Source of the DNA: Candidatus Sumerlaea chitinivorans
Lineage (GTDB): Bacteria > Sumerlaeota > Sumerlaeia > Sumerlaeales > Sumerlaeaceae
Assembly: GCA_003290465.1 (NCBI GenBank)
Contig: CP030759.1
Location: 1,116,001-1,180,000, forward strand
Length of the DNA stretch: 64,000 nt
Direction: 5' to 3'
Made by a program: the position numbers and the translations under genes. Positions 26,966 through 46,404 of the stretch are shown in pieces (position 1 is the first letter of the stretch; each line of letters begins with the position of its first letter). The notes beneath the pieces were generated by a model. That model searched no databases. It saw only the letters and a list, made by a program, of their open reading frames with translations, and was not told the DNA's origin.

Positions 26966-28450
26966 ATGAACGTGGATGAAGCAAAAATTTCAGCCATCGT
27001 GGAAGAAGTTGTCCGCCGCCTGAAGGAACAGGGTTTCGCAAGTGGCTCTCTCCCACAAAGCAGCGCTGGGGCGGGGGCAGTGGCAACTCGAAGCCGTGGC
27101 ACGAGCGGACTGCGTGGCGTCTTCTCAACCATCGAAGAGGCCATCGAGGCTGCATGGCAATCTCAGAAGATCTATGCGGATGCTTCGATGGAAACCCGCA
27201 AGAAAGTTGTGGCAGCCATTCGACAGGTCGGCGAAGAGCACAAGGAAGATTTTGCACGGCGGATCTACGAAGAGACGAAGCTTGGGCGCATTGACCATAA
27301 GATTCGCAAACACGAGATCGTCATCCGGTTAACCCCGGGACCAGAGGACTTGGTCACGCGGTGTTGGAGCGGCGACCACGGGCTTACGGTCGAGGAATAT
27401 GCGCCGTATGGTCTCATCGGGGCAGTAACGCCGGTCACACACCCCGTCGAGACGGCGATCAATAATGGCATCAGCATCCTTTCGGGTGGAAACACCGTGG
27501 TGTTTAACCCTCACCCAGCTTCTAAGCGCGTGTTTGCTTACGCCATACATCTCTTCAATGAAGCTATCTATCGGGCTACCGGACTCGAAAACTTGATGAC
27601 GACTATCGAAGAGCCAACCATCGAGACCGGCAAAACGATGTTCCGACATCCGAAGGTGCGAGTGTTATTGGTTACGGGTGGGCCCGGCGTGGTGCGCGAG
27701 GCACTCAACAGCGGGAAAAAATGCATTACTGCTGGCCCGGGCAATCCGCCGGTGGTCGTGGACGAGACAGCAATTATCCCAAAAGCTGCCAAGGATATCA
27801 TCGATGGGGCTGGTTTCGATAACAACATCCTGTGCATAGGAGAAAAGGAAGTTTTTGTCGTGGAGAGCGTGGCCGATCAGCTGATTGCAGAAATGAAAAA
27901 GCTTGGATGCGTCATGCTTTCGCGCGAACAAATCTCGGCATTAGCAGAGAAAGCTTTCCGATGCGAAGGTCAACATGGGAGTGGAAAATCCTGTGGCGGC
28001 GCGGTTTTGAACCGTGATCTCGTTGGACGCAGCCCACAGGTCTTAGCGCGCGCGATTGGCTTAGAGGTTCCGCCTGACTGCCCCATGCTGATTGGCGAAA
28101 CGGAGTTCGATAACCCTTGGGTCCAGCACGAGCAAATGATGATGTTCCTGCCCATCGTGCGCTGTCGCAATTTTGACGAAGCGCTCGACATGGCTGTAAA
28201 AGCCGAGCACGGGTATGGACACACCGCTGTGATTCACTCTCTGAATGTAGCCAACATGACGAAGATGGGCAAGGCAATGAACTGCTCCATTTTCGTGAAA
28301 AACGGGCCGTCGTACGCTGGCCTTGGAGCTGGCGGTGAAGGGCATACCTCCTTTTCTATTGCGAGCCCGACCGGCGAGGGACTAACCACCGCCCGCACAT
28401 TCTGCCGAATCCGTCGCTGTACGCTCGTCGATTACTTACGCATCGTTTAG
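26966..28450 (+). CDS. CoA-acylating aldehyde dehydrogenase with microcompartment encapsulation peptide (PduP/EutE type)
   Basis: The 494-residue enzyme converts an aldehyde and CoA to acyl-CoA with NAD+. The catalytic Cys is about residue 290 in FDNNILCIGEKEVFV. Other landmarks are YAPYGLIGAVTPVTHP, SGGNTVVFNPHPAS, LLVTGGPGVV and ITAGPGNPPVVVD. The N-terminus (residues about 7-22, KISAIVEEVVRRLKEQG) is an amphipathic helix, followed by a Ser/Gly/Ala-rich linker of about 25 residues before the core. This is the layout of encapsulation peptides that send PduP into bacterial microcompartments. No shell gene is adjacent, but a EutN/CcmL vertex protein is encoded at 46129. A rho-independent-type terminator follows (28509-28550). 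Confidence 0.92.
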   Translation: MNVDEAKISAIVEEVVRRLKEQGFASGSLPQSSAGAGAVATRSRGTSGLRGVFSTIEEAIEAAWQSQKIYADASMETRKKVVAAIRQVGEEHKEDFARRIYEETKLGRIDHKIRKHEIVIRLTPGPEDLVTRCWSGDHGLTVEEYAPYGLIGAVTPVTHPVETAINNGISILSGGNTVVFNPHPASKRVFAYAIHLFNEAIYRATGLENLMTTIEEPTIETGKTMFRHPKVRVLLVTGGPGVVREALNSGKKCITAGPGNPPVVVDETAIIPKAAKDIIDGAGFDNNILCIGEKEVFVVESVADQLIAEMKKLGCVMLSREQISALAEKAFRCEGQHGSGKSCGGAVLNRDLVGRSPQVLARAIGLEVPPDCPMLIGETEFDNPWVQHEQMMMFLPIVRCRNFDEALDMAVKAEHGYGHTAVIHSLNVANMTKMGKAMNCSIFVKNGPSYAGLGAGGEGHTSFSIASPTGEGLTTARTFCRIRRCTLVDYLRIV

Positions 28451-28508
28451 CGGGCACGCTTCATAGCGCGGTGAGGGCCAAGGCAGTTGAGCATTTCTTG
28501 CGGCGCAT

Positions 28509-28550
28509 GCCCCCACCCTGAACGACGGAGGTGGAGGCCCCGCATTTTTT
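28509..28550 (+). terminator. Rho-independent terminator after the aldehyde dehydrogenase
   Basis: GCCCCCACC (28509-28517) pairs with GGTGGAGGC (28530-28538) with one mismatch around a 12-base loop. Six T residues follow at 28545-28550. It lies between the aldehyde dehydrogenase and hisH on the same strand and separates their transcripts. Confidence 0.7.
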
Positions 28551-28616
28551 CACGATCGAGCTACCCTCACGCGTTGCCGAAATAAAGATCCGCATATCCT
28601 CTATTGAGTGCATAAG

Positions 28617-29237
28617 ATGATTTCGATCGTTGATTACGGAATGGGAAATTTGCGCAGCGTCGCGAAGGCCTTCGAGAAGATCGGGGCAAAGGTCGAGCTT
28701 ATCGAGACCTTAGACGACGTTCGCCGCGCGCACACCCTTGTGGTTCCGGGCGTCGGAGCTTTTGGCGACGCGATGGCAGGCTTGGAGCAACGCAAGCTCA
28801 CAGGGGCAATCCGTGAGCATGTGGAAGCAGGAAAACCACTTCTCGGAATATGCTTGGGACTCCAAATTCTCTTCGAGCGCAGTGAAGAATCCCCGAGCGT
28901 TCCCGGCTTGGGAATCTTGCGAGGAGACGTGCGACGTTTCGTTTCCGCTGACCTAAAAATCCCGCAGATGGGATGGAATAAGATCGAGGTCAATCCTCAA
29001 AGCCGCCTGCTGAGAGGCTTAGGTGACAATCCCTACGTCTACTTTGTGCATTCGTACTACGTGGCTCCGATTGACCAGGAAGTGATCGCCGCCACTACTG
29101 AGTACGGGATCCAATTTGTTTCCGCGATTGAGCGTGGAAACCTCTTTGGAGTGCAATTTCACCCAGAAAAAAGCCAGCAAATTGGGCTTCAGATTCTTCG
29201 CAATTTTGCAACGTTGGTGGGTGAAATTCCTGGATAG
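28617..29237 (+). CDS. hisH: Imidazole glycerol phosphate synthase glutaminase subunit
   Basis: HisH releases ammonia from glutamine for HisF in histidine biosynthesis. The class I glutaminase features are present: N-terminal MISIVDYGMGNLRSVAKAFE, LVVPGVGAFGDAM (oxyanion strand), the nucleophile Cys in KPLLGICLGLQILFE, and the His-Glu pair in FGVQFHPEKS. I use ATG 28617 rather than the GTG three codons earlier because the family starts directly with the beta-strand. At 206 residues the length is normal. hisF is not adjacent, so the histidine genes are dispersed. It converges with cimA across a strong stem-loop at 29335-29371. Confidence 0.95.
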   Translation: MISIVDYGMGNLRSVAKAFEKIGAKVELIETLDDVRRAHTLVVPGVGAFGDAMAGLEQRKLTGAIREHVEAGKPLLGICLGLQILFERSEESPSVPGLGILRGDVRRFVSADLKIPQMGWNKIEVNPQSRLLRGLGDNPYVYFVHSYYVAPIDQEVIAATTEYGIQFVSAIERGNLFGVQFHPEKSQQIGLQILRNFATLVGEIPG

Positions 29238-29334
29238 CGGGCCTGTTCAAAGCACCCAGCCAATATCTGCCGACAGGCGAGTAGCGCACGATCGGTGCGG
29301 TGAAAGCCAATGCGCTGGGCCGCCTTAAATGGAA

Positions 29335-29371
29335 AGCGGTGAGGTGTTGCCGATCGCAAAACCTCACCGCT
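29335..29371 (-). terminator. Terminator-like stem-loop between hisH and cimA
   Basis: AGCGGTGAGGT (29335-29345) and ACCTCACCGCT (29361-29371) form a perfect 11-bp stem with a 15-base loop between two convergent genes. On the minus strand the 3' side continues TTCCATTT, so it suits termination of cimA best, and may act in both directions. Confidence 0.6.
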
Positions 29372-29400
29372 CGGCTTGTATGCGCGTCGCTTGAGACAGG

Positions 29401-31008
29401 CTACTCACCTACATTGGCGCGTTCGCTCTCCGCCGAACGCAGCAACCGATATTCGATAGAATCCACAAGGGCCTGCCAACTTGCCTCGATGATGTTCTCC
29501 GAGACACCGACCGTTGTCCAAGCTTGCTCACCATCAGAACTTTCAATGAGCACGCGGACCTTTGCAGCGGTCCCCGCCCGAGCGTTGATCACTCGGACTT
29601 TGAAGTCCGTCAGATGCACTTTCTCGAGCTCGGGATATGCGCGAGAAAGAGCCTTACGTAGAGCCCGATCCAGCGCGTTGACCGGCCCATCGCCATCCGC
29701 GACCACATGGTGCTCCTTGCCTTTTACATTGAGCCGAATGATGGCCTCAGCCGGACACGGTGCATACGGGCTTTTGCCATAGGTGATCACCTTGAAATCC
29801 TTGAGTTCAAAGAACGGTGTGTACTGACCTTTGGCCTTTTTCACGAGTAACTCAAAGCTCGCTTCTGCCGCTTCAAACTGATACCCGTCGGCCTCCAGCT
29901 CCTTGATCTGTTGGACGATCTGCTTGACGTCTTCAGAAGTTGCCGCGAGGTCGATTCCCAGCTCTTCGAGTTTCGACTGAATGTTGCTTTGCCCGCTTAG
30001 CTCGCTCACCAGAACTCGACGGACGTTCCCCACGGTTTCTGGCGGAATATGCTCGTAGGTCGCTGGGTTGCGTCGCACGGCGCTCACATGTACGCCGCCC
30101 TTATGGGCAAAGACGGTTTGTCCCACATAGGGTTGTCGCGGATCTGGCGGGATGTTCGCAATCTCAGCCACAAAGTGCGATACTGCAGTCAGTTCCCGAA
30201 GTTTCCCCGGTGGCAAGCAGCGCTTCTTTAGCTTAAGCTCAAGATTAGGGATGACTTGGATGAGGTCCGCGTTGCCGCACCGCTCACCATAGCCATTAAT
30301 AGTCCCCTGAACGTGTGTCGCGCCGTGGTACACGGCGACTACTGAGTTTGCAACTGCCATACCAGCGTCATTGTGAGTATGAACGCCGATAGGGAGTTTC
30401 ACGGTCTCCCGAACCTTTGCCATGATTGCCGGGATTTCCGTGGGCATGGTGCCACCGTTTGTATCGCAGAGCACAATGCAATCGGCCCCAGCTTCTTCGG
30501 CCGCCTTCAAAGTTTGCAGTGCGTAGGCTTCATTGCTCTTGAAGCCGTCGAAGAAGTGCTCTGCGTCGTAAATGACCTCTCGACCGTGGCTCTTGAGGAA
30601 ACTGACAGAGTCGCGAATCATTTCGAGGTTCTCTTCCAAGGACACCCGAAGCGCCTCGTGCACATGCAAATCCCAAGTCTTGCCGAAAATGGTGACCACG
30701 GGTGTTTCCGCTTCCAAAAGTGTGAGAATCTGGGAATCCTCCGACGCCTTCATGTTCTTTCGGCGCGTACTCCCGAAAGCAGCCAACTTCGCGTGGCGCA
30801 AAGGGATGTTCTTCATTTTCCGGAAGAAATTGATCGCTTTGGGATTCGAGCCGGGCCAGCCTCCCTCGATGTAGTCGACGCCAAAGTCATCGAGCCGCTG
30901 CGCGATGTGAATCTTGTCCTCTAAGGAATACGAGATAAACTCACCTTGCTCACCATCCCGAAGAGTCGTGTCATAGATCAGAACATCTTTTTGGACTTTA
31001 TCACTCAT
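29401..31008 (-). CDS. cimA: Citramalate synthase (2-isopropylmalate synthase family)
   Basis: A 535-residue TIM-barrel acyltransferase of the DRE-TIM group. The metal/substrate motif is IYDTTLRDGEQGEFISYS, followed by DYIEGGWPGSNPKAINFF, typical of CimA rather than LeuA. CDTNGGTMPTE, GVHTHNDAGMAVANS, GTINGYGERCGNADL and FAHKGGVHVSAV complete the active site. A C-terminal LeuA-type allosteric domain (about 150 residues) is present. CimA makes (R)-citramalate from acetyl-CoA and pyruvate for isoleucine synthesis. Family members are sometimes annotated as alpha-isopropylmalate synthase, but the GGWPGSNPK motif makes citramalate the better call. A small hairpin (ATTGG/CCAAT, 31128-31149) lies in its leader. 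Confidence 0.88.
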   Translation of the reverse strand: MSDKVQKDVLIYDTTLRDGEQGEFISYSLEDKIHIAQRLDDFGVDYIEGGWPGSNPKAINFFRKMKNIPLRHAKLAAFGSTRRKNMKASEDSQILTLLEAETPVVTIFGKTWDLHVHEALRVSLEENLEMIRDSVSFLKSHGREVIYDAEHFFDGFKSNEAYALQTLKAAEEAGADCIVLCDTNGGTMPTEIPAIMAKVRETVKLPIGVHTHNDAGMAVANSVVAVYHGATHVQGTINGYGERCGNADLIQVIPNLELKLKKRCLPPGKLRELTAVSHFVAEIANIPPDPRQPYVGQTVFAHKGGVHVSAVRRNPATYEHIPPETVGNVRRVLVSELSGQSNIQSKLEELGIDLAATSEDVKQIVQQIKELEADGYQFEAAEASFELLVKKAKGQYTPFFELKDFKVITYGKSPYAPCPAEAIIRLNVKGKEHHVVADGDGPVNALDRALRKALSRAYPELEKVHLTDFKVRVINARAGTAAKVRVLIESSDGEQAWTTVGVSENIIEASWQALVDSIEYRLLRSAESERANVGE

Positions 31009-31250
31009 AAGCTGCGCATCCTTTCGATATAAGAACTGTGGGCAATGTGTGCGGAATCTGCCCGCTCATCACAGAGATTATTTTCTGAGGGTGATTGCTG
31101 AATATAGGAGATGTGGGATGTGCGCTTATTGGACCCGTGAGGGCCCAATAATACCGATGGCAATTATGCAGGTGGGCGATATGTGGCGCAGTTGTGCCAT
31201 TGTTGCTCTGTGATACCGCCGTGCTCCTTTTGCATTCAAAAAGTCAACTC

Positions 31251-32078
31251 TTACCAATACTTTTCGTAATGGATTTCGCCTTCGCCTGTTGCAGGATCAA
31301 ACAGCCTGTACCCCTCGCTGGAAAGAATCCCGATCATCGACTCGATCATAGTGGGGTTCCCACACAGGAATACGTGTGTTGTCCCCGGCGAAGGATTGAA
31401 CCCCCAACAAATACCGATTTTGCGCTCGCGCCACACATTTTGTACATACCCGGTCAAACCACTCCACGGAACTGGCTCGAGGTAGGGGCGGCTGACAACG
31501 GGCAAATAGGCAAAGTTTTTACGGAGTCGCGCCATGGTGATGAGTTCAGCGTGGTACCCAAGATCCCATGAGCATTTTGCCCCATGGATGACCGCGAAGT
31601 GACGTTCGTGATCGTGAGCAAGGTGGGTCCGGAGCATACTCATGTAGGGCGCAATGCCTGTGCTTGTTGCCACCAAAACTACGTGGCGATCGGGTGGAAC
31701 TTGATCCAACGTAAACAGCCCGCTGACTTTTTTCCCAAGCCACAGTTTATCCCCTACCTTCAAGGCAAACAAACGAGGCGTCAGCTCCCCCGTCCGCACC
31801 AGACTGATGTAAAACTCAAAATACTCTTCTGCTTTTGAGGATGAAGCGATCGAATATGCTCGACGAATCAGCTTTGAGGGCTCTTGGGGCTCGGAAGATT
31901 CGGACTCGGAAATCCAGACGCGAGGGGCTGAAGCGGGTAAGCCAAGAACTGCGAACTGGCCCGGGATAAACGAGGGCAAAGGCCAATCGACCGGAGCCAC
32001 CCGAAGGATCATCAGCTCAGGAGTCACATCGATCCTATGCAAGACTACAGCATTAAGCTGAGCGTCGGCATCACTCAT
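31251..32078 (-). CDS. fpr: Ferredoxin--NADP+ reductase
   Basis: This flavoprotein passes electrons between ferredoxin or flavodoxin and NADP(H). FAD-binding motifs are IPGQFAVLGLPA and RRAYSIASS. The NADP site has VLVATSTGIAPYMSMLRTHL and the segment TTHVFLCGNPTMIESM. It ends in YEKYW, whose terminal aromatic residue is typical of bacterial Fpr proteins and stacks on the flavin. At 275 residues the length is standard. There is no fused 2Fe-2S domain. It lies 93 bp downstream of the ABC permease gene on the same strand, so it may or may not share that transcript. Confidence 0.9.
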   Translation of the reverse strand: MSDADAQLNAVVLHRIDVTPELMILRVAPVDWPLPSFIPGQFAVLGLPASAPRVWISESESSEPQEPSKLIRRAYSIASSSKAEEYFEFYISLVRTGELTPRLFALKVGDKLWLGKKVSGLFTLDQVPPDRHVVLVATSTGIAPYMSMLRTHLAHDHERHFAVIHGAKCSWDLGYHAELITMARLRKNFAYLPVVSRPYLEPVPWSGLTGYVQNVWRERKIGICWGFNPSPGTTHVFLCGNPTMIESMIGILSSEGYRLFDPATGEGEIHYEKYW

Positions 32079-32171
32079 GGGTTCAGTGCCTTACGTGGAC
32101 AGAAGCATATTTCAATGCTATTCGTACAAACTCGAGGACAGGCTGAGCGAACGCCGCCACACCGGCAGAGA

Positions 32172-32993
32172 TCACTGTTGTTCTACGCCTTCACGAAGAG
32201 CGTGTTCGCGTTGAGTAAAGAGAAACCACGACAACGTTGCCATGAGTGCCCCAAAGATCAGGAGGGACGAAGCCGCAGAGAAGTCGGTCACTTCTGCATC
32301 TTTCATTATAAGCTCCAAGGGGCCATCCGTCATGAGCGACTGCGGGCAACCGCTCAAGATCAGGACGCAAAACCGAGGTGAGAGCAACTTGAGCGAACTT
32401 GGAATGATCATCACCACAAATTCGACAAAGAACAAAAAACCACCGCCGTACGTCAGAGGTTTGCGGGTGAAGAGGGATAGAAACATTCCTAAGTAAAAGT
32501 ATGGAAATGCACCGAGTAGGGCGGCCAGCACATGCCAAGAAATGATGCCAGCTTCCTTTGCTAACATCTGGGGATTTTCCATCAACCCACACACGACATA
32601 GGTGGCCAATAATGTGATTACCAAAAAGAGACTCAGCCACCCAAAAGCGACGAGGCTCTTAGTCCCCCAAAGGAGCGTCCGAGACACTGGGCGAGTCCAA
32701 AGATGCACGAGCGTTCGAGATTCAAGTTCTTCGCTAAGAACGAGAATCCCGGCATATAGTGCAGAAGCAGGTAGAATCAAGCCTACAAAAAGCCCCACAA
32801 AAAGCTCAAAATACTCATCGATGGGCGAGATGGGAATGTGAGATCCTTGGTTACTGGCGAGCAGCCGACTCAAGAGCTTGACGAGAGACGGTAGTAACCC
32901 CACCCACAGCAACAGCACAAGACGCACTTTCCCGCGGAAGAACTGATAGTTAGTAATCCGCGTGAGAGCTTGTATCTGGCTCAGCATGGACAT
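32172..32993 (-). CDS. ABC-2 type transporter permease (second pair)
   Basis: I place the start at ATG 32991-32993 (MSMLSQIQALTRITN), just after the stop of the upstream ATPase; the open frame runs further upstream, but that would overlap the ATPase. Hydrophobic segments (VRLVLLLWVGLLPSLVKLL, LFVGLFVGLILPASALYAG, SLVAFGWLSLFLVITLLA, GGGFLFFVEFVVMIIP, LLIFGALMATLSWFLFT) give about six transmembrane helices. The motif LSEELESRTLVHLWTRPVSR is typical of ABC-2 permeases of the NosY/CcmB-like group. It is the partner of the ATPase at 33002. Substrate unknown. Confidence 0.8.
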   Translation of the reverse strand: MSMLSQIQALTRITNYQFFRGKVRLVLLLWVGLLPSLVKLLSRLLASNQGSHIPISPIDEYFELFVGLFVGLILPASALYAGILVLSEELESRTLVHLWTRPVSRTLLWGTKSLVAFGWLSLFLVITLLATYVVCGLMENPQMLAKEAGIISWHVLAALLGAFPYFYLGMFLSLFTRKPLTYGGGFLFFVEFVVMIIPSSLKLLSPRFCVLILSGCPQSLMTDGPLELIMKDAEVTDFSAASSLLIFGALMATLSWFLFTQREHALREGVEQQ

Positions 32994-33001
32994 TGGGTGG
33001 C

Positions 33002-33946
33002 TCACTCTTTCACCAAGTACTGGAAGACCGCGTCCAAATTGTCGTCCACCGCATAGACTTCCTCGACCGACCATTGGCGGGCGACCACCCCATTTTGAAT
33101 CACCTCGAACAGTTCCGCTGGTCTATTAGTGCGCACCTCGAGGGCGTCCTCCGGGGGCTCTGCAAATGTCAAGGCCATCACAGATTCGAGTTTCGCGAGC
33201 TCGCCAGCAATTCTTCTGCGCTCGCGGCTCACGATACGGTAAGTAAGTGGCTGGTTTTCGATCAGAAACCGAATTTCCTCAATTCGTCCCTCGGCAAGAA
33301 CACGTCCACGATGTATAAGCAAAATCCGATCTGTGAGAGCCTCAATCTCGTGCAGAATGTGACTCGACACAAGGACAGTTCGTCCTTCGGTCCCCAATTT
33401 TCCGAGTAAATCGAGTACAAGCTTGCGGCCCGGCGGATCTAAGCCGTTTAAGGGTTCGTCTAAAATAAGGACTTCCGGGCCGTGAATCAGCGCTGCGGCC
33501 AACTTGACGCGCTGGCGCATCCCCTTTGAGTATTCTCGGATCCGGCGATGCGCAAACGCACTCATTTGGAGAAGTTCGATGCGTTCTCGCGCTCGCACCA
33601 GACTTTCATCGCGAGGAAAACCGCTGAGCTGCCCCATGAGGGTTATAAACTCTTCGGCATTCATGTCCTCATAAAAACTATCGGTATCAGGACAGTAGCC
33701 AACCCTACGCATGACCTGAGGTTCCCGCCACGGATTGCAGCCAAGTACGCGAACTTGCCCACGGCTTGGACGCAGACGCCCTGTGATTAAATTGAGCAAC
33801 GTTGATTTTCCCGCGCCGTTTGGCCCCAGAATGCCAGTGACCCCAGCACCAAATGAAGCGGTGAGCTGGTTGACGCCAATCACCTCTCCGTACCATTTGC
33901 TGACGTCACGCAATTCTATCACTGAGCCGTTTGACTGGCGACTCAC
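33002..33946 (-). CDS. ABC transporter ATP-binding protein (second pair)
   Basis: The frame is open for another 130 codons upstream, but GTG 33944-33946 is the likely start: GGAGG lies seven bases before it, and its GTGA overlaps the stop of the preceding permease. The product then starts directly with IELRDVSKWYGEVIGVNQL. Walker A is GPNGAGKST, the signature is YSKGMRQRVKLAAALIHG and Walker B is VLILDEPLNGLDP. A C-terminal domain of about 80 residues follows the H-loop (VLVSSHILHEIE). It energises an ABC-2 exporter together with the permease at 32172. Confidence 0.88.
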   Translation of the reverse strand: MSRQSNGSVIELRDVSKWYGEVIGVNQLTASFGAGVTGILGPNGAGKSTLLNLITGRLRPSRGQVRVLGCNPWREPQVMRRVGYCPDTDSFYEDMNAEEFITLMGQLSGFPRDESLVRARERIELLQMSAFAHRRIREYSKGMRQRVKLAAALIHGPEVLILDEPLNGLDPPGRKLVLDLLGKLGTEGRTVLVSSHILHEIEALTDRILLIHRGRVLAEGRIEEIRFLIENQPLTYRIVSRERRRIAGELAKLESVMALTFAEPPEDALEVRTNRPAELFEVIQNGVVARQWSVEEVYAVDDNLDAVFQYLVKE

Positions 33947-35806: not shown

Positions 35807-35834
35807 TCGCGTTTTCCTTTTTCTCACTCAGATG

Positions 35835-36692: not shown

Positions 36693-36709
36693 GTTCGCTC
36701 CCAGCGTCC

Positions 36710-39586
36710 TTATTCGCAGATCAGTGCTTTGGGACGTTTCACCGAGCCACGCAACACTTGCCGGAGGTAGTGTCCAGTAATGGAGTCGTTGTTCTCTGCT
36801 ACCTCTTCGGGTGTCCCTGTTGCCACGACTCTCCCTCCCTCCTCGCCACCTTCCGGCCCAAGATCAATGACGTAGTCCGCACATTTGATGACATCCAGAT
36901 TGTGCTCGATGACGATGACCGTATTGCCTTGGTCAACGAGAGAGTGCAGTACGTGAAGCAACTGCCGAATGTCTTCGAAGTGCAGTCCTGTGGTGGGCTC
37001 ATCCAGAATGTACACGGTCCGACCAGTCGCTCGGCGTGAAAGTTCTTTGGCTAACTTCACACGTTGAGCCTCTCCCCCACTGAGTGTTGTGGCGCTTTGG
37101 CCAAGGGAAATATAGCCAAGCCCAACATCGCAAAGCACCTGAAGTTTCTGGGCAATGGGCGGAACGGAACTGAATAGCTCAAGAGCCTCTGCAACCGTCA
37201 TTTCGAGAACGTCGGCAATCGAAGCGCCGCGATACGTGATTTCCAACGTCTCGCGGTTGTAGCGACGCCCCTTACAAACCTCGCACTGCACAAAGATGTC
37301 CGGCAAGAAATGCATCTCCACCTTGACAAGCCCGTCTCCTTGGCATGCCTCGCACCGCCCACCTTTGACATTAAAGCTGAAACGCCCGGCTGTGTAGCCG
37401 CGCGCCCGAGCCTCAGGAAGCTGCGCAAACCATTCTCGAATCGGTGTGAGTACGCCCGTGTAAGTCCCGGGGTTTGAGCGTGGGGTTCGTCCAATCGGCG
37501 TTTGGTCAACATCCACAACTTTGTCCACATGTTCAAGTCCATCGATCGAGTCATGGTCCCCGGGTCGCAAATGCGAGTGATACAGCTTCACTGAAAGCGC
37601 ACGATAAAGGATCTCGTTCACTAAGGTGGACTTTCCGCTTCCGCTCACGCCAGTGACGCACGTAAAGACGCCCAACGGAAAAGCTACAGTGATGTTCTTC
37701 AAATTGTGTTCGCGGGCTCCCCTGACGATTAGTTCATAGCCACGACGCACCGGACGCCGTTGCTTAGGAGTCTCAATAGATAGCTCGCCACGAAGATACC
37801 TGCCGGTGATCGACTCGGGCGCCCGAGCCACCTCTTCTGGAGTTCCTGCCGCCACCAAATGCCCCCCCTCGCGACCAGCACGCGGCCCCAAATCCACGAC
37901 AAAGTCTGCTGATCGAATGGTGCTCTCATCATGCTCAACCACCAGCACCGTATTCCCCAAATCACGCAACTGGCGAAGCGTGGCAAGGAGACGTTGATTG
38001 TCGCGTTGATGCAGGCCAATCGAGGGCTCGTCCAGAACGTACAGCACCCCAACCAACTGCGAACCGATTTGCGTTGCCAGCCGGATGCGTTGTGCTTCCC
38101 CACCCGCGAGAGTCCCCGCAGGACGGTCCAATGTCAGATAGCTCAGCCCAACATTTAGCAGAAACTGAAGTCGGTCTTCGATCTCCTTGAGTAGCGGCGC
38201 TGCAACTTGCCTCTGTCGGGAGCTCAGTTCCAAGTTCGCAAAAAAACGCCTACACTGCTCAATCGTCAGTGCACATAACTCACTGATGTTGAGTCCCCCA
38301 ACGCGCACGGCAAGGGCCTCTGGCTTTAGCCGCTGACCGTTGCAGGCCGAGCATTTGATTTCACGCAGGTATTGGGCAAGCTCAAGGTGTTCATCCTCAT
38401 GATAGCGCCGGCGAATGCGTGGGATCATTCCTTCCCAATCGCTCTCGGCGCGATATTCCGAGCCTGTGCGTGAGCGATAGACGACAGGGAACTTTTCTCC
38501 TCCGTTCCCCCAAAGTAACAGCTTTTGGATACGCTTGGGCAACTTCTTGAATGGGACATCGAGGCGAAAACCGTAGTGGTCAGCCATCGCCTTCAGAAAC
38601 TGGTTCTGCCACGCAGTCCTCTCCCGCCCATCGCTTTCATCCGTTAGATGTGCCCATGGAGCGAGGGCTCCCTCGGATAACGATAGCTCAGGGTTTGGCA
38701 CAATCAGCGATTCGTCCGGCTCCATCAGAACCCCTAAGCCGTTACACTTTTGGCACGCGCCTACAGGAGAGTTAAAGGAGAATAGGCGGTGGGTAAGCTC
38801 TTCGAGCGCGATACCGCAATCCGGACAAGAAAACTTCTCACTGAAGAGCATGACGCGGCCTTCATCCACAAGCTGGACCTCGACAAGGCCATCCGCCCGC
38901 TTTAGAGCAATTTCGAGAGATTCCGCCAAACGCGATCGAACGTCGGGGTGAACCGTCAAGCGATCCACCACAAGCGAGATAGTGTGCTTGCGCGTCTTTT
39001 GCAGTCTGGGAATTGTGTCCAACTCGACGAGTTGGCCATCCACGATCGCTCGCGTGAATCCATTTTTGCGCGCCTCCTCGAAAAGCTCGCGATATTCGCC
39101 CTTTCGCCCACGCACGACGGGGGCCATGACGAAAAAACGCGTTTGGGGCGGCAGCGACAAAATCGCCTCCGTCATCTGCTCGGTTGTTTGCTGCTGAATG
39201 GGCTTCCCGCACTGGGGACAATGTGGCTGGCCGATTGTGGCGTAGAGCACTCGCAGATAGTCGTAAATTTCCGTGACCGTGCCGACCGTGGAGCGGGGGT
39301 TCGAGCTGATCGTCTTTTGCTCAATAGAAATTGCCGGCGACAGCCCGGTGATCAGCTCAACTTTGGGCTTGGGCATCTGCTCGAGGAATTGCCGCGCATA
39401 CGCTGATAGGCTCTCGACATACCGACGCTGCCCTTCCGCGTAGATGGTATCAAAAGCAAGTGAGCTTTTGCCGCTGCCACTTAGCCCCGTGATTACGGTC
39501 AAGGAGTTTCGCGGAATGTCGAGGTCAATGTTTTTCAGGTTATGTTCGGCGGCACCACGAATGACAATACAGTCCCGCGTATGCAT
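36710..39586 (-). CDS. uvrA: Excinuclease ABC subunit A
   Basis: UvrA is the damage-sensing ATPase of nucleotide excision repair. The 958-residue protein has two ABC modules: Walker [21 protein letters not shown] near the N-terminus and [19 protein letters not shown] in the second half, with ABC signatures [12 protein letters not shown] and [18 protein letters not shown]. Zinc-finger cysteines are in [12 protein letters not shown] ... ACQKCNGLG and in [20 protein letters not shown] ... [10 protein letters not shown]. Length and domain order are normal. Its start lies 111 bp from the divergent RNase HI gene. The best Shine-Dalgarno candidate (AGGAGA) is rather far, about 17 bases from the ATG. 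Confidence 0.97.
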
Positions 39587-39697
39587 CTTAACCGTTTGTT
39601 CGTCTCCTCTTCCTCACGATTAGTGGCAGGTCGAACTCCTCAACCGCCCGGCAATTTTCTTTTGCATGCTCGGCTGATGCGCTCACATGCATTTACC

Positions 39698-40555
39698 ATG
39701 AGTCTTTCACCAGAAATACGGCGTCTTCTTCAGAAGACACTTAGGATCAAAGGAAGCGATGTCCCTTTGCACCGGGTGTTGGACATTTTGGCTACGGAGG
39801 ACGGCGACGTCAGTGAAGTAGTGAACCGGTTTCGGGACATCGAGAATACTGCTCTGCGTACGGCCTTTCATAACTGTGCAGTCTTGCTTCGCATGTTGGA
39901 GGCGCAAGCCGGGCTCACCCCCACGTGGGAAGGGGGGCCGGGTGCTGAAACGCAACAGGCGGTAGCCAGTAACACGAAATCCACCGATTCATCCCCACCG
40001 ACTAAGAATGCTCCCAAGCGACGCTTCACTCCGCAAGAGCTTCAGCCGTTTGTGGATGAGACACAGCGAGGAAAGGTCTCGGTAGCGAAAGTCTATGTGG
40101 ACGGAGCAAGCCGAGGGAATCCCGGTCCCGCGGGGATCGGTGTGGCACTCTTCACCATGGACGGCAAAAAGATTGCTCAAATCTCCCGTGCCATCGGCAC
40201 GACCACCAACAATGCAGCTGAGTACACAGCTCTCATTGAAGCCCTCAAATTAGCAAAGGACCTCGGCATCCAACAACTTTATGTCCTTAGCGACAGTCAG
40301 CTCATGGTTAACCAAATGACCGGTCGGTATAAAGTGAAGCATCCACAAATTGCTGAGTTTGTCGCACAAGCTCAAGAATTGGCAAAGCAGTTCGCAAAAG
40401 TCTCGTTTCACTTTATCGAGCGCGAAAACAATCGGTTGGCAGACGCGCTTTCAACCGCCCCGATCGCGAAAATCCCAAACCAGAGAACAGACTCGTCGAG
40501 CCAAGAACTGATGGCTTTACTGGACGATAATCCGGATGAGGGCCGCACAGAATAA
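39698..40555 (+). CDS. RNase HI-domain protein with N-terminal helical extension
   Basis: The C-terminal half is a type 1 RNase H: KVYVDGASRGNPGPAGIGVA (first Asp), TTNNAAEYTALIEALKLA (Glu), LYVLSDSQLMVNQMTGRYKV (Asp), and FIERENNRLADALS (last Asp). All four acidic positions are kept, so cleavage of RNA in RNA/DNA hybrids is expected. The pattern is that of the RNase HI family of YpdQ/RnhA-like proteins. The N-terminal about 90 residues (MSLSPEIRRLLQKTLRIKGS onward) form an unassigned helical domain joined by a Thr/Ser/Pro linker. The open frame extends upstream into uvrA; ATG 39698 avoids that overlap. No clear ribosome-binding site. Confidence 0.85.
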   Translation: MSLSPEIRRLLQKTLRIKGSDVPLHRVLDILATEDGDVSEVVNRFRDIENTALRTAFHNCAVLLRMLEAQAGLTPTWEGGPGAETQQAVASNTKSTDSSPPTKNAPKRRFTPQELQPFVDETQRGKVSVAKVYVDGASRGNPGPAGIGVALFTMDGKKIAQISRAIGTTTNNAAEYTALIEALKLAKDLGIQQLYVLSDSQLMVNQMTGRYKVKHPQIAEFVAQAQELAKQFAKVSFHFIERENNRLADALSTAPIAKIPNQRTDSSSQELMALLDDNPDEGRTE

Positions 40556-40918
40556 GCGCCGGTGACCCACAGGCACGCGCCAGCAACTACCCAATCTTTC
40601 TGCAGAAACTCCAGTCGCCTTGCAGCGCGAACGAAGCGAGGGTTCTCGGTTCCGATTCATTTCCCCCAAAAACGTGACGGCCCGGCGGAGGGGGTGCGGA
40701 CGCCGGGCCGTTGGAGGAACCCTCGCGAGCCCCTCCAAATCTTGTTCTTATTTCAATTGGCCAAAAAACCAAACCTAAGCGCTCGCAATTCGATAAACCT
40801 AAACCGAGAATTGCAAGGATGATTTCGGGGGCTGCCGATACCCTAAGCTAAAGAGTTGACGTCTGGGCGATTCGCTCCCCAACCTTCTGCCAAAATTTAG
40901 GCAGAAACGGAATAACGG
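40556..40918. other. Intergenic region with tandem stem-loops after the RNase HI gene
   Basis: These 363 bp hold two adjacent hairpins (40677-40711 and 40711-40738) followed by a T-rich run. The remainder shows no gene. AGGCAGAAACGG (40908-40919) precedes the next gene's ATG, without a strong Shine-Dalgarno sequence. Confidence 0.45.
40677..40755 (+). terminator. Tandem terminator hairpins
   Basis: Hairpin 1 has ACGGCCCGGCG (40677-40687) paired perfectly with CGCCGGGCCGT (40701-40711), 11 bp with a 13-base loop. Hairpin 2 has TTGGAGG (40711-40717) paired with CCTCCAA (40732-40738). It is followed by the T-rich ATCTTGTTCTTATTTC. Together they look like a strong intrinsic terminator for the RNase HI transcript. 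Confidence 0.65.
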
Positions 40919-41695
40919 ATGCCACACATTGCTCTTCAGCTCTACACGCTTCGCAACGAGTGCGAGAAGAATTTTGAAGCAGTGTTAGACCAAGTGGCAC
41001 AGATGGGCTACGAAGGCGTTGAATTTGCGGGTTATTGGGGACGGCCTGCGGCAGCGCTCCGCGCGCAATTGGATAGACTTGGGATCGTGGCTGTCTCCAC
41101 TCACGTGGGGATGGATACGATCCGAGAAAAATTTCCTCAAGTCCTCCGGGATGCAAAAACGCTTGGATGCAAATACGTCACGGTACCTGCGCCCCCTTCG
41201 AACTTCGCAGGCGACGAGCCCGCATGGCGCATTTTCCGAGAGGAGCTGAAGTTCTATCACGTGCTCCTTCAGCACTCCGGTTTGGCGCTGTGCTATCACA
41301 ACCATGCCCGCGAATTCGAGCCCGTGGAGGAGGACTTTGTACCATTCGACTGGTTTTTCAGCAAACCCCACGGGTTTCTCTGTCAACTCGACGTGTATTG
41401 GGCCAGTTTTGCAGGATGCGACCCTTCACAGCAGCTGCGTCAGCTTGTTGGCAGGTGTCCGCTAATCCACGTTAAGGACATGTCCAAAGATGAAACGCGG
41501 CGCGATGAGATTCCCGGGGACGGGTGCTTACCGTGGCGTGACATTCTGGGTGCCGCGTTAGAAGCGCAAACCGAATGGCTTATCGTGGAGCAGGACAATC
41601 CTCGCGAGAATGCCATGCTTGCAGTGCAACGTGGATTGCACTTTGTGAAACGATGCCTTAGGGAAATCGCCTCTCAGCGCCCCACTACTCAGTAA
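40919..41695 (+). CDS. Sugar phosphate isomerase/epimerase family (xylose isomerase-like TIM barrel)
   Basis: The 258-residue protein has the AP endonuclease 2/IolE-type TIM barrel. The start MPHIALQLYTLRNECEKNFE is typical, followed by VAQMGYEGVEFAGYWG. Metal-ligand positions fit STHVGMDT, LCYHNHAREFEPVE, QLDVYWASFAG and PLIHVKDMSKDE, with a final Glu in EWLIVEQDNPREN. Such enzymes isomerise or epimerise sugars, inosose or hydroxy-acids; the substrate is not deducible. It stands alone after a strong terminator and is followed by galT on the other strand. Confidence 0.85.
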   Translation: MPHIALQLYTLRNECEKNFEAVLDQVAQMGYEGVEFAGYWGRPAAALRAQLDRLGIVAVSTHVGMDTIREKFPQVLRDAKTLGCKYVTVPAPPSNFAGDEPAWRIFREELKFYHVLLQHSGLALCYHNHAREFEPVEEDFVPFDWFFSKPHGFLCQLDVYWASFAGCDPSQQLRQLVGRCPLIHVKDMSKDETRRDEIPGDGCLPWRDILGAALEAQTEWLIVEQDNPRENAMLAVQRGLHFVKRCLREIASQRPTTQ

Positions 41696-41919
41696 GCTAA
41701 GCGGAACCCGTCCCTGCCGATGAGCGAACACGCGTTACCACCGGCGAACATTGGTCTCGGAGCAGAGGGCGGGGTGAGAAGATTTGTTGCCTTTCTTTCG
41801 ATGAGTGCAACGGAGTAGGTGTCTAACTTTTTCTGCCGCCCACCCGCATTGCTTTTCTACGCTGAGATGATTTCTGACAAAGCCTGCATAACCCGATTCA
41901 ACATGTGCGGTAGGCGACG

Positions 41920-42981
41920 TCAGCTACTCCCTACACTAATAGCACTTACCACTTGAGGCGCTGCTTGAGGTTGGCCTTCTTTCGATGCCAGTTCACGCAG
42001 ATGCCTCGCTGCATCCTCGGGTGGCGTCGGGTTGATATAAAACCCACTACCCCACTCAAAACCCGCAACCCGTGTTAGTTTTGGCATAATCTCGATGTGC
42101 CAGTGATAGTAGGGAGCACTGCCAGACTCGTCATAAGGCGTCGTGTGGATCACAAAGTTGTAGGGCGGATCGTCAAGCGCCTGTTTGATTAAAGAGAACG
42201 TCTTCTTCATAATCCGCGCCAGATCCACGATTTCGTTTTTCGTAATGTCCGAAAAGAACGACGTGTGCTGCTTGGGGACGATGCACGTTTCGAAGGGGAA
42301 ACGACTCGCAAAGGGCATGTAGCTCAAAAACGTGTCGTTCTCGGCCACAGTGCGGATATTGTCCTCGAGCTCCTGATGAATCATGTCGCAAAACACGCAC
42401 CGTTCTTTGTAGTCAAAATAGCGGCCTGCCCCTTGGAGCTCCTCCTGAACACGTTTCGGTACGATTGGGAGCGCAATGATTTGAGAGTGAGGATGCTCGA
42501 TTGAAGCGCCGGCTTCTCGCCCCCAATTTTTGAAAATCATGATGTAGCGCATGCGCGTATCTTTGCGCATTTCCACCATTCGGTCGCGGAACGCCCAAAG
42601 AATCTCTTGGATTTGCTCTTCCCCAAGATCCGCATAGGTTTGGGCGTGGCTTGGACTTTCCACCACGACCTCATGGCGCCCAATCCCGCTCATACGGTCG
42701 TACATTCCCTCGCCGGAACGGCGAAGTTCGCCCTCGGGTTGAAGCGCTGGGAATTTGTTGGGCACCACGCGGACCCACCAACCTTCACTATCGCGCGGCG
42801 TATTGGGATGACGGTAGCTCAGGACCTCGGGGGGCGTGCTGGACTCATTTCCGGGACAAAATGGGCAAAAGCCTCCCCGTTTCTCTTCCTCGATCTTAAC
42901 GTACTGATTTGGCCGCTTGGCTCGCTCGGTGGCGATGATCACCCAGCGACCCGTAACCGGATCCTTACGAAGTTCTGGCAC
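41920..42981 (-). CDS. galT: Galactose-1-phosphate uridylyltransferase
   Basis: GalT exchanges UMP between UDP-glucose and galactose 1-phosphate in the Leloir pathway. The 353-residue protein starts (GTG) with MPELRKDPVTGRWVIIATER. It has the HIT-superfamily active site GASIEHPHSQIIALP, whose His-Pro-His holds the nucleophilic His. Further conserved segments are GFCPFCPGNE and CVFCDMIHQE (paired Cys for metal), FPFETCIVPKQH and YHWHIEIMPKL. AAGGTGA precedes the start. Related enzymes (ADP-glucose phosphorylase) share this fold, so specificity should be treated as probable. It is convergent with the isomerase-like gene; galK and galE are absent nearby. Confidence 0.9.
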   Translation of the reverse strand: MPELRKDPVTGRWVIIATERAKRPNQYVKIEEEKRGGFCPFCPGNESSTPPEVLSYRHPNTPRDSEGWWVRVVPNKFPALQPEGELRRSGEGMYDRMSGIGRHEVVVESPSHAQTYADLGEEQIQEILWAFRDRMVEMRKDTRMRYIMIFKNWGREAGASIEHPHSQIIALPIVPKRVQEELQGAGRYFDYKERCVFCDMIHQELEDNIRTVAENDTFLSYMPFASRFPFETCIVPKQHTSFFSDITKNEIVDLARIMKKTFSLIKQALDDPPYNFVIHTTPYDESGSAPYYHWHIEIMPKLTRVAGFEWGSGFYINPTPPEDAARHLRELASKEGQPQAAPQVVSAISVGSS

Positions 42982-43467
42982 GATACTTCACCTTACGCTG
43001 TGTAGTCTGGCACTTCGCTTTGGCACAATAAAATATAGATCGATCCAATTCCATTGCCTACTCTACTTCCCGCATCTACATTCGCAAATAAAATGTGAAG
43101 CAAACCGTGACGACATTTTTGTGTAAAACATCTACATTAATTGTTCGATTTTAAGTATTCATGTTTCAATTGTCTGACTTGGGCACATTCTCTCCGATTT
43201 CCGGTCGCGATCCGGCCCGGACAAGATCAACACGGACACTTTCCACCCTCATCCTTCCACCATCCGCTCTGCTACTCGCTCGACCACCTCTTGCTCGTGC
43301 AGCAGTCGGAGGATTCACTACGCCGCTTAAGACCCCGGAGAATACGCTACCCACGAAGCTTCCTCGAGACCACTTTCATGGAGTCTACGCGTTAGCTCCT
43401 TTGGCGGCTAATCAGGTTTTCCTCGCAGATTTCGAATCAGCAATCCAAAATCTGAACGCCATCCACC
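42982..43467. other. Upstream region of galT (486 bp without a supported gene)
   Basis: The region separates galT from the end of the metallophosphatase-like gene, both on the minus strand. Open frames of up to 118 codons (plus strand, 43161-43517) show no recognisable product, biased composition and overlap with the neighbour's 3' end. The part 43020-43160 is AT-rich and carries a promoter candidate and a 10-bp direct repeat, CATCTACATT, at 43073-43082 and 43129-43138. Confidence 0.4.
43032..43060 (-). promoter_or_regulatory. Candidate sigma-70-type promoter of galT
   Basis: On the minus strand TAGGCA (43055-43060) and TATATT (43032-43037) are 17 bp apart, about 50 bp upstream of the galT start. 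The -35 matches 4 of 6 consensus bases and the -10 matches 5 of 6. It lies in the AT-rich stretch. The assignment is by pattern alone. Confidence 0.3.
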
Positions 43468-44577
43468 CTAATTCACTGGCTGCTGGGAATCTGTTAACTC
43501 CTTTAGGTAATCCGTAATGAAATGTGAGTAGTCGGGGTGAGGAGGAATCGTCTGTTCAATGTCGACAAGTTTGTTGAGGGCTTGGGAAATCTTGCCGTTT
43601 TGCATTTGCAGGAGGAGATGTCCGACATGTCGCCCTTCGAACCCACCGCTCACCATGCGCACCCCATTCACGTTATCAATTTGATGAAAGACACCCAGGA
43701 ACTCGCCGGCGATGGCCACATCAATGCCGGGATCGGGCCCGAGCTGTTCGAGGGTTTGCCGCAAAGTCTCACGATTCATGTAAGCGAGGAGAATAATGAA
43801 GTCGCAGTTGCCTTGGAGCTCTTTCACAACTTCCTTGATTGCAGGAAGTGGGTCCAGAACCTGAAAGGTGGGCGCCTGCGGCGACACGCCAATACGTTGG
43901 CGGGTAACGCCCGTGACCCCAATTCGAACTTGGGTTCCATCCCCCAGCTTAACTTCAATGATCCGGTATTTGCTGAACAGTGGAGCACTTGATGTGGGGT
44001 CAACGATGTTCGCACTAACCAAGCGGTCCGCATGCTTTCCGAGGTTTTCGGCCAAGAAACTTTTACCTGCCAGCGCATCTGGGGCACCAACATTCAAAAC
44101 ATCGTAATCAAGAGCAGCGAGCGCCTTTAAAAGATGCTTTGACGCTACGCGGAAATTCTCGGATGCAAGCGCGTTGTCCCGAATGTAGCCGCCTGCTTCG
44201 AGCTTCACTACGGGAAGCGACAGCTCCTTGAGTCGCTCGACAACCTGCGCCTCTCGGTTAATCCCACCCAATTTGTGGCTCACACAACCACACGGCTCTA
44301 ACGAAGACCGTCGATAGCCGTTGTAAACTACGGAAAGCACACTACGTCGGTCCGGAGGTGCTCCCGCAGGCATAATATGGGTATCAAGCTCTTGGGGGGA
44401 CATTGGAACAGGCGTGACCTTTACTGGGCCCGTCGTTGCGCCAACGTGGCTAACCGGAGCAGACGCACTTCCCTGCACATTTTTCGCTGATTTTGAGGGT
44501 GCTGTTACTGCGCGTGTCTCGACAGCACACGCGATGCTTACAAGGATCAAGAAGAGTAACCTAACCATTTGAGACAT
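43468..44577 (-). CDS. Exported metallophosphatase/5'-nucleotidase-like protein
   Basis: The start ATG 44575-44577 is chosen because AAAGGAG lies seven bases upstream and the product then begins with a signal sequence (MSQMVRLLFLILVSIACAVE). After a low-complexity Ser/Ala/Val linker the core shows SSLEPCGCVSHKLGGINREA, then YDVLNVGAPDAL, LVSANIVDPTSSAPLFSKYR, VRIGVTGVTR, FIILLAYMNRETL, GIDVAIAGE and RMVSGGFEGRHVGHL. This order resembles the N-terminal half of UshA-type 5'-nucleotidases. The usual first metal motif (D-H) is absent and the CGC/GG segment stands in its place. Activity is therefore uncertain. It is divergent from the GT-C-like gene. Confidence 0.7.
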   Translation of the reverse strand: MSQMVRLLFLILVSIACAVETRAVTAPSKSAKNVQGSASAPVSHVGATTGPVKVTPVPMSPQELDTHIMPAGAPPDRRSVLSVVYNGYRRSSLEPCGCVSHKLGGINREAQVVERLKELSLPVVKLEAGGYIRDNALASENFRVASKHLLKALAALDYDVLNVGAPDALAGKSFLAENLGKHADRLVSANIVDPTSSAPLFSKYRIIEVKLGDGTQVRIGVTGVTRQRIGVSPQAPTFQVLDPLPAIKEVVKELQGNCDFIILLAYMNRETLRQTLEQLGPDPGIDVAIAGEFLGVFHQIDNVNGVRMVSGGFEGRHVGHLLLQMQNGKISQALNKLVDIEQTIPPHPDYSHFITDYLKELTDSQQPVN

Positions 44578-44714
44578 CAAAATCTCCTTTGGTTTTAAGT
44601 CGAACCTCGTTTGGTCACGACCCATCAAGAGCAAGAAATAGACCACTTGCTTTTTGCGAACGCTGACTTGAAATCAGCCGTGCTTGCAGAAAGTCAATGT
44701 TCTAATTTTATGCG

Positions 44715-46106
44715 ATGAAATCATCTAATGCTGAGCACCGAAGGTTAGCGCTGAGCGACAACGATAAGTATTTAGCTATTCTTGTCGCACTGCTTCTTTG
44801 CGCATTGCCCATTGTGTTGCGACCTTCTATACGCGGGAATGACGGTGTCCAAAACTATGCTTATTTACGATCGCTCCTCTTTGACCGCGATTTGGATTTT
44901 GCAAATGAGTATGCGTACTATTTCGAGCGCAACCCCTCTTGGTTTAATCATCAGGAACTAGGCCGGGATCCAGTTACCAGTCGCCCCATCAATCTTTACG
45001 GTATCGGCAACTCACTGCTGTGGTCTCCGTGGGTTTTGGCGATGCACGGTGTGGGGCTTCTTGCTCGAACGTTCGGGTGGGGTGGTCAACTCGACGGCTT
45101 CTCCCATCTTTACGAGTGGGGTGTTGGCCTCGGTTCGAGCGTTTATGCGACGATTGGCCTGATCTTCTTGTTTCTCTTATTGCGGAGGCAGGTGGAACCT
45201 CGTGCCGCTTTCTGGGCAACCATGTCCGTGTGGCTGGCATCCCCGCTGTTCTTCTACATGTATCTACATCCATCAATGAGTCACGCCAATTCGTTTTTCC
45301 TGTCCGTCATCTTCGCGTATTTGTATTTAGCAGTTCCTGATACTCTCCGAAAGTGGTTCGTCTCAGGGTGCGTGGGAGGGCTCCTTGCGCTGACTCGCTA
45401 TCAGGATGCAATCCTGTTAGTTGCCCTTGGTGTAGGTGAAATCCTATTGTTGCTTGAAGGTTTGTGCGAGAACGCACGCTCGTCGCAACCCAACGATTCT
45501 TTTCGGTGGGCCGTAAGCTGGTTCTCTCAACGCAGCGGCCGTTATGCCGTATTTCTCGCGTGCACACTTCTTGTTTTTTCGCCCCAGCTTGTGTGCTGGC
45601 ATATCCTGCAAGGAAGCCCGCTTAGCGGACCAAGAGGCTATCTAACGCAAGGGACTTTTAACCTCTTTGCACCACGTCACTTGCTTGACGTGCTTTTTAG
45701 CTCACGCCACGGGTTGTTCTTTTGGCATCCGTTTCTATTCTTAGGCGTAGTGGGACTACTCAGCCAACGAATTCCGCGGCATTGGCGGGTATTCGCCCTC
45801 ACCGCGTTTGTGATGCAAAGCTGGCTTGTGGGCTCGTGGAGCCATTGGTGGGCTGGGGCAAGCTTTGGCCATCGCATGTTCATCAGTACGCTTCCTCATC
45901 TGGCCATAGGGTTGAGCGCCGCGCTGGGTTGGGACAAACGACTGACCCGCTGGGTGCCTGTCGTGGTGATCGCTTTTGCATTATGGAACTTCGGTTACAT
46001 CGTGCAATATGCCACCGGAATGGTTCCGCGGCAGGATCCCGTGAGCCTGTTTCAACTGATACGCAATAACGTCATTGAGGTCCCCAAGTTATTGCTCGGC
46101 CGGTAA
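44715..46106 (+). CDS. Polytopic membrane protein, GT-C/PMT glycosyltransferase-like
   Basis: The 463-residue protein has about ten transmembrane helices, beginning YLAILVALLLCALPIVL. A first exported loop carries the acidic motif RGNDGVQNYAYLRSLLFDRD, in the position where GT-C enzymes of the GT39/GT83 type have their catalytic Asp-containing loop. Later segments include GNSLLWSPWVLAMHGVGLLA, LASPLFFYMYLHPSMSHANS and WLVGSWSHWWAGASFGHRMF. This resembles lipid-linked-sugar-dependent protein or glycan glycosyltransferases, but the family is broad and I cannot name a substrate. It is divergent from the metallophosphatase-like gene (137 bp apart) and convergent with the EutN-like gene. Confidence 0.65.
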   Translation: MKSSNAEHRRLALSDNDKYLAILVALLLCALPIVLRPSIRGNDGVQNYAYLRSLLFDRDLDFANEYAYYFERNPSWFNHQELGRDPVTSRPINLYGIGNSLLWSPWVLAMHGVGLLARTFGWGGQLDGFSHLYEWGVGLGSSVYATIGLIFLFLLLRRQVEPRAAFWATMSVWLASPLFFYMYLHPSMSHANSFFLSVIFAYLYLAVPDTLRKWFVSGCVGGLLALTRYQDAILLVALGVGEILLLLEGLCENARSSQPNDSFRWAVSWFSQRSGRYAVFLACTLLVFSPQLVCWHILQGSPLSGPRGYLTQGTFNLFAPRHLLDVLFSSRHGLFFWHPFLFLGVVGLLSQRIPRHWRVFALTAFVMQSWLVGSWSHWWAGASFGHRMFISTLPHLAIGLSAALGWDKRLTRWVPVVVIAFALWNFGYIVQYATGMVPRQDPVSLFQLIRNNVIEVPKLLLGR

Positions 46107-46128
46107 TGTCGCGACCATCGTTGTCCCG

Positions 46129-46404
46129 CTACGGGACGATATCAATTGAATCAACAATACCGACAATTGCTGCGTCCACGGGAATATCCTCCCCCCGAAG
46201 GCCCGTGAAAACAGCGTCGCCACTTGCGACATAATAGACGATTTCGCCCACCCCGTGACGTGCCGTCGCATCGGTGGCAATGAGGGGCTCTCCTACGGGT
46301 TCAAGCTTCTCATTGAGCGGCTGAATCACACATAGCACAGCACTCTCCAGCGACGAGACCTTACGCGTGGAGACGATGGTACCGATGATTCGTGCAATAT
46401 CCAT
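46129..46404 (-). CDS. EutN/CcmL-family microcompartment vertex protein (BMC-P)
   Basis: The 91-residue protein matches the pentameric shell-vertex family of bacterial microcompartments. It starts MDIARIIGTIVSTRKVSSLE, continues AVLCVIQPLNEKLEPVGEPL and ATDATARHGVGEIVYYVA, and ends DIPVDAAIVGIVDSIDIV. All strands of the small OB-like barrel are present and the length is normal for CcmL/EutN (80-100). Vertex proteins cap icosahedral shells built of BMC-H/T tiles, none of which is in the window. An aldehyde dehydrogenase with an encapsulation peptide is encoded 18 kb away. The gene stands alone, convergent with the GT-C-like gene and divergent from a TPR gene. No clear ribosome-binding site. 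Confidence 0.92.
   Translation of the reverse strand: MDIARIIGTIVSTRKVSSLESAVLCVIQPLNEKLEPVGEPLIATDATARHGVGEIVYYVASGDAVFTGLRGEDIPVDAAIVGIVDSIDIVP

What the first reader, a model, noticed from the sequence alone, without database searches (positions are those of the whole stretch)
26966..46404. Two microcompartment parts in one window without a shell operon
A CoA-acylating aldehyde dehydrogenase with an amphipathic N-terminal helix (residues about 7-22) and flexible linker looks targeted to a microcompartment lumen. A EutN/CcmL vertex protein lies 18 kb away as a single gene. Known Pdu, Eut and planctomycete-type loci keep these together with BMC-H tiles. Either the locus is scattered in this lineage or these are satellite copies. 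The window also has transketolase, a tal-pgi fusion and a sugar isomerase-like enzyme, which could feed an aldehyde-producing sugar pathway.
Basis: partly seen in the sequence, partly recalled or inferred. Interest (0 to 1): 0.75.

Follow-up and report, generated by a model that had tools for sequence, protein, structure and literature searches.

The report
Protein organelle with genes scattered genome-wide
The two genes are real parts of a bacterial protein organelle whose pieces are spread over about nine places on one chromosome of a deep-aquifer bacterium, and a shared address tag on its enzymes suggests it breaks down the sugar of DNA, a job not previously assigned to such scattered organelles.

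Summary
Confirmed, with a better explanation. The window lies in a closed 3,289,105-bp genome of the exact length published for Candidatus Sumerlaea chitinivorans BY40 (Sumerlaeota). It holds an EutE-type CoA-acylating aldehyde dehydrogenase (AldDH) with a predicted encapsulation helix, and a solo EutN/CcmL vertex gene. The vertex gene is P2 of a P1-P2-P3 triplet that is tandem in seven related genomes and split here. The helix motif IVEEVVRR recurs in one other protein found by a whole-genome profile search: the only deoxyribose-phosphate aldolase (DERA) gene, which has an ~80-residue extension. An RpiB paralogue carries a C-terminal module resembling one on PVM-type aldolases. The parts list matches the SPU microcompartment type (DERA + RpiB + AldDH), although the AldDH does not group with SPU/EUT1 enzymes. 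Best reading: a dispersed metabolosome that cleaves deoxyribose-5-phosphate to acetaldehyde and makes acetyl-CoA inside the shell. FRAG has had no assigned signature enzyme, so this gives a testable one. The transketolase/tal-pgi feeder idea has no support. No binding, assembly or activity was tested.

The parts
26966..28450 (+). EutE-type CoA-acylating aldehyde dehydrogenase (494 aa), predicted lumen enzyme; single copy in the genome
   Evidence: PRK15398 630 bits; single copy; conserved in all family members of good completeness, 64-87% identity; tree
26978..27028 (+). predicted N-terminal encapsulation helix, residues 5-21 (EAKISAIVEEVVRRLKE)
   Evidence: AlphaFold2 helix 5-21; motif shared with the DERA N-terminus
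27029..27115 (+). flexible linker, residues 22-50
   Evidence: pLDDT under 50 for residues 23-45; length-variable in relatives
46129..46404 (-). BMC-P vertex protein P2 (EutN/CcmL family), a solo gene between a PMT-type glycosyltransferase (44715-46106) and a TPR protein (46433-47437)
   Evidence: PF03319 74.5 bits; P2 orthologue group (98/96 support) across Sumerlaeota, tandem with P1 and P3 in other families; same neighbours in G001, G003 and G004

Best explanation
The window holds two parts of one complete bacterial microcompartment whose genes are dispersed over about nine places of the chromosome. Shell: BMC-H1 (C1:586306-586611), BMC-H2 (C1:874647-874967), a PduT-like BMC-T (C1:90950-91504) and three vertex proteins, P1 (C1:905822-906133), P2 (window 46129-46404) and P3 (C1:2849810-2850139). 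Predicted contents: AldDH (window 26966-28450) and the only deoxyribose-5-phosphate aldolase gene of the genome (C1:672487-673395), both with an N-terminal helix of the pattern IxxIVDEVVRR; an RpiB-like isomerase (C1:3237641-3238255) with a C-terminal module; a flavoprotein (C1:585406-586224) with helical ends; and a PduS-like electron carrier (C1:91517-92875) encoded 12 bp from the BMC-T. [quoted passage not shown] Shown here by sequence: the gene set, its dispersal, the shared tag and the conservation. Inferred: encapsulation, assembly of one shell, the substrate and the electron path. The lineage probably inherited a more clustered set that broke up.
For: Shell genes elsewhere in the genome. 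The same set, AldDH + 3 BMC-P + BMC-H, in all five other family members at least 92% complete, scattered there too. The tag profile finds only AldDH (E 3.6e-10) and DeoC (4e-8) in the whole genome. Not only circular: a profile made from DeoC tags alone finds AldDH as best other hit (E 0.005), and the AldDH-only profile finds DeoC next (E 0.65), scaled to the genome; a motif pattern hits 2 of 153 ORFs. DeoC: TIGR00126 293 bits starting at residue 84; the first 78 or more residues are aligned to no solved DERA; an extension of at least 77 residues recurs in shell-bearing relatives with a DHT-type DERA, against 48 in shell-less G026 and G032. Of 41 genomes, the 14 with two RpiB genes all have shell genes; the second RpiB has the C-terminal module. 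In G004 that RpiB lies one gene from BMC-H2. BMC-T matches PduT and keeps the Cys38 position. G039, outside the window's class in the same phylum, has one compact contig with DeoC, RpiB, PduT-like, PduS-like, AldDH, 3 BMC-P, BMC-H and part of PduL.
Against: The AldDH tree puts the scattered Sumerlaeota enzymes with PVM-type AldDHs, away from EutE and the SPU-type G039 and G056 (long branches), so substrate by descent could differ. PduL is absent here; the Pta that could replace it (C1:68472) was not found by the tag search and sits 22 kb from the BMC-T, though it adjoins BMC-T in G001 and G007. G014, G016 and G022 have shell genes but no tagged DERA was found, and shell-less G037 has a tag-like start on its DERA. 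The tag profile scores poorly on DERA of more distant families. The RpiB paralogue has Asp where solved RpiBs have the active-site Cys, so its activity is unsure. No expression or binding data.
Confidence: 0.72

Rival explanations
1. A dispersed PVM-like compartment: the AldDH acts on lactaldehyde from fucose or rhamnose, and the tagged DERA is a minor or secondary cargo.
For: AldDH groups with PVM AldDHs of Planctomycetota and of G015/G034. Two Sumerlaeota relatives carry compact PVM-type loci with a class II aldolase.
Against: The only other tag carrier found genome-wide is DERA. The three vertex proteins form their own Sumerlaeota groups, apart from the vertex proteins of the G015/G034 PVM loci. 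RpiB and PduS/PduT fit the SPU set.
Confidence: 0.15
2. Decaying remnant: the pieces are relics of a once clustered organelle that no longer assembles.
For: Genes scattered, PduL lost in this genome, no operon.
Against: All shell classes and the AldDH are intact; the AldDH is kept at 64-87% identity across several genera, and three vertex paralogues are found in the 16 shell-bearing genomes among the 20 of good quality; P2 keeps the same neighbours across genera. Relics would be lost or broken in some.
Confidence: 0.07
3. Two unrelated stray genes: the AldDH is a soluble EutE-like enzyme and the EutN homologue does something else.
For: Solo genes among housekeeping neighbours (transketolase, hisH, TPR protein).
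Against: Full shell set in the genome; conserved encapsulation helix shared with DERA.
Confidence: 0.03

Closest known systems
FRAG-type microcompartments (Sutter et al. 2021, PMC8217296)
   Same: No locus organisation, shell genes at up to six places, a BMC-P triplet, AldDH mostly remote
   Different: FRAG is described without an obvious aldehyde-producing signature enzyme; here a tagged DERA and an RpiB paralogue are proposed. Whether this genome is in that catalogue could not be checked.
SPU (sugar phosphate utilisation) microcompartments
   Same: DERA (pfam01791), RpiB (pfam02502), AldDH, PduS
   Different: SPU is a compact locus and its AldDH (other than SPU6) lies on the EUT1 branch; here genes are dispersed, the AldDH groups with PVM enzymes, and PduL is absent
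HO-type microcompartment of Haliangium ochraceum
   Same: BMC-P triplet; DERA-family gene elsewhere in the genome, sometimes with an EP-like N-terminus
   Different: HO keeps a main locus and has BMC-Tdp proteins; none was found here
BRC1 satellite-like loci (Axen et al. 2014, PMC4207490)
   Same: Same phylum; satellite loci, several with PduL or AldDH, noted in single-cell genomes of Poribacteria and BRC1
   Different: There it was open whether the core locus was simply unsequenced; the closed genome shows the dispersal is real

Membership tests
FRAG microcompartment | Shell genes dispersed, no defined locus | tested here: met
   Six shell genes at six places in one closed contig
FRAG microcompartment | BMC-P triplet | tested here: met
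   Exactly three BMC-P, three orthologue groups with 98-99 bootstrap support
FRAG microcompartment | Shell-protein HMM composition of a FRAG subtype | not testable with these tools
   BMC Caller HMMs and the supplementary data were not available
SPU microcompartment | DeoC-type pfam01791 aldolase as cargo | tested here: inconclusive
   Gene present, with an EP-like extension; encapsulation itself not tested
SPU microcompartment | RpiB pfam02502 as cargo | tested here: inconclusive
   RpiB paralogue with C-terminal module, but active-site Cys replaced by Asp
SPU microcompartment | AldDH on the EUT1/SPU branch | tested here: not met
   Tree groups it with PVM-type AldDHs
SPU microcompartment | Genes in one locus | tested here: not met
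   About nine places
PVM microcompartment | Class II aldolase pfam00596 with encapsulation peptide | not tested
   The own genome was not searched for PF00596
ACI microcompartment | Acidobacteria, main locus with BMC-P triplet and class II aldolase | tested here: not met
   Sumerlaeota; the triplet is split
Metabolosome in general | Encapsulation peptide on the AldDH | tested here: met
   Helix 5-21, linker, conserved; binding not tested
Metabolosome in general | Phosphotransacylase for CoA recycling | tested here: inconclusive
   PduL absent; Pta present at C1:68472

The most novel reading that the evidence does not exclude
The enigmatic FRAG microcompartments, at least in Sumerlaeota, are deoxyribose-phosphate metabolosomes recognisable by the shared encapsulation tag rather than by gene neighbourhood; the organelle persists without any operon after an ancestral cluster broke up, suggesting constitutive, housekeeping use.
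Probability: 0.55. Interest if true: 0.75.

Novelty: new variant of a known kind. Interest (0 to 1): 0.62.

Why it matters
FRAG microcompartments are described as having no obvious signature enzyme (PMC8217296). A tag shared by AldDH and DERA gives a specific, testable function and a way to find cargo of scattered organelles without gene neighbourhood. It also suggests that an organelle can survive complete break-up of its gene cluster, and it settles in a closed genome the question left open in 2014 about BRC1 satellite loci.

Tried and rejected
Transketolase and tal-pgi as cargo: no tag. The 18-kb linkage as proof of a cluster: about one in three by chance. RpiB at C1:880191 near BMC-H2: it is the housekeeping-type copy, beside what looks like glyA, without the module. 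Phosphopentomutase (deoB) 2 kb from BMC-H1: true only in G000, G001 and G007 of those compared, so not used as evidence. ACI type: rejected by phylum and layout. Filing it as SPU: rejected because the AldDH branch and the locus criterion are not met. The flavoprotein helix is weak by hydrophobic moment (44% of shuffles as high), so it is not counted as a tag.

Full report
Observation. Both genes are real. The AldDH at 26966-28450 scores 630 bits on the EutE-type model and is the only copy in the genome. The vertex gene at 46129-46404 scores 74.5 bits on PF03319. AlphaFold2 places a helix at residues 5-21 and a low-confidence linker at 23-45 ahead of the enzyme domain.

Organism. The genome is one contig of 3,289,105 bases, the exact size listed for Candidatus Sumerlaea chitinivorans BY40 in PMC8092238; the nearest named AldDH relatives are Sumerlaeota MAGs. 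The identification rests on length and kinship, not on a name in the record.

BMC-H genes exist at C1:586342 and C1:874722, a two-domain BMC-T at C1:90980-91495, and BMC-P genes at C1:905885, C1:2849810 and in the window. So the window genes are satellites of a dispersed shell.

Relatives. The other family members of at least 92% completeness all keep the AldDH, three BMC-P genes and BMC-H genes. The vertex proteins form three orthologue groups, P1, P2 and P3. In G009, G010, G014, G018, G019, G028 and G030 the three are tandem; in G013, G031, G033 and G036 P2 and P3 are tandem with P1 elsewhere, and G035 has the same layout by position; in G016 and G022 P1 and P2 are tandem; in the family of the window all are split. 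The simplest reading is an ancestral triplet that broke up. P2 sits between the same two neighbours in G000, G001, G003 and G004.

Cargo. The AldDH N-terminus (SAIVEEVVRRL) is nearly repeated in the DERA N-terminus (SLIVEEVVRRV). A tag profile over the whole genome finds only these two (both were among its rows). Profiles built from one enzyme alone rank the other next: E 0.005 and 0.65, scaled to genome size. The pattern occurs in 2 of 153 ORFs. The DERA is an equivalog match (293 bits) with an extension not aligned to any solved DERA, and it is the only PF01791 gene. A second RpiB has a C-terminal module that weakly matches the N-terminal module of a PVM-type aldolase (E 0.013). BMC-T is PduT-like with the Cys38 position kept (the Fe-S role is from general knowledge of PduT) and is encoded next to a PduS-like protein. 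The flavoprotein by BMC-H1 is conserved beside BMC-H1 in the family.

Compact cousins. G039, outside the window's class in the same phylum, has in one 6.9-kb contig a flavoprotein-DERA fusion, RpiB, PduT-like BMC-T, PduS-like protein, AldDH, three BMC-P, BMC-H and part of PduL. This is the SPU set and mirrors the dispersed parts list. G015 and G034 instead have compact PVM-type loci.

Descent. The AldDH tree groups the dispersed Sumerlaeota enzymes with PVM AldDHs, apart from EutE, G039 and G056. So it works like SPU but is not filed as SPU; by layout and triplet it is FRAG-type.

Mechanism. Deoxyribose-5-phosphate is cleaved by DERA inside the shell; AldDH converts acetaldehyde to acetyl-CoA; PduS and the PduT-like protein would carry electrons out. 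CoA recycling is unsettled: no PduL, a stand-alone Pta at C1:68472. Everything beyond gene content, tag and conservation is inference.

Literature. FRAG and SPU: PMC8217296. BRC1 satellites: PMC4207490. The Sumerlaeota physiology paper PMC8092238 does not mention compartments, deoxyribose or acetaldehyde. No held paper on Sumerlaeota microcompartments was found; the one paper with both terms cites a planctomycete study.

Noticed in passing
L198:6007-6888 (G013), L195:5190-6128 (G031); also G009:C311:5576-6394, G033:C18:142981-143811, G035:C86:459-1298: Shell proteins of about 300 aa with three tandem BMC (PF00936) domains in one frame. The catalogue text read here describes one- and two-domain proteins; no solved chain matched all three domains in one stretch. 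Would presumably form a dimer-based pseudohexamer.
   Followed up: partly
L193:5641-6255 (C1:3237641-3238255): The compartment-type RpiB has LVDGAGY where the housekeeping copy has LVCGSG: the active-site Cys is Asp in the module-bearing copies read, so its substrate or chemistry may differ.
   Followed up: partly
L192:5487-6395, residues 30-80: The DERA linker often carries a Cys-rich stretch (for example CECPDC here, CTACGSC in G010) followed by a GA-R-I/V motif in several families; function unknown.
   Followed up: no
L111, L112 (G015:C63, G034:C107): Compact PVM-type loci with class II aldolase, LDH-like enzyme and PduL (AckA-like in L111) in two Sumerlaeota genomes, which shows more than one microcompartment type in the phylum.
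   Followed up: partly
L272:4650-5684 and L279 (G001, G007): Pta adjoins the PduT-like BMC-T in G001 and G007, while in the window's genome the Pta lies 22 kb away: a possible PduL substitute that moved apart.
   Followed up: partly
L010:11604-12821: Phosphopentomutase (deoB), which would supply deoxyribose-5-phosphate, lies 2 kb from BMC-H1 in G000, G001 and G007 only.
   Followed up: yes
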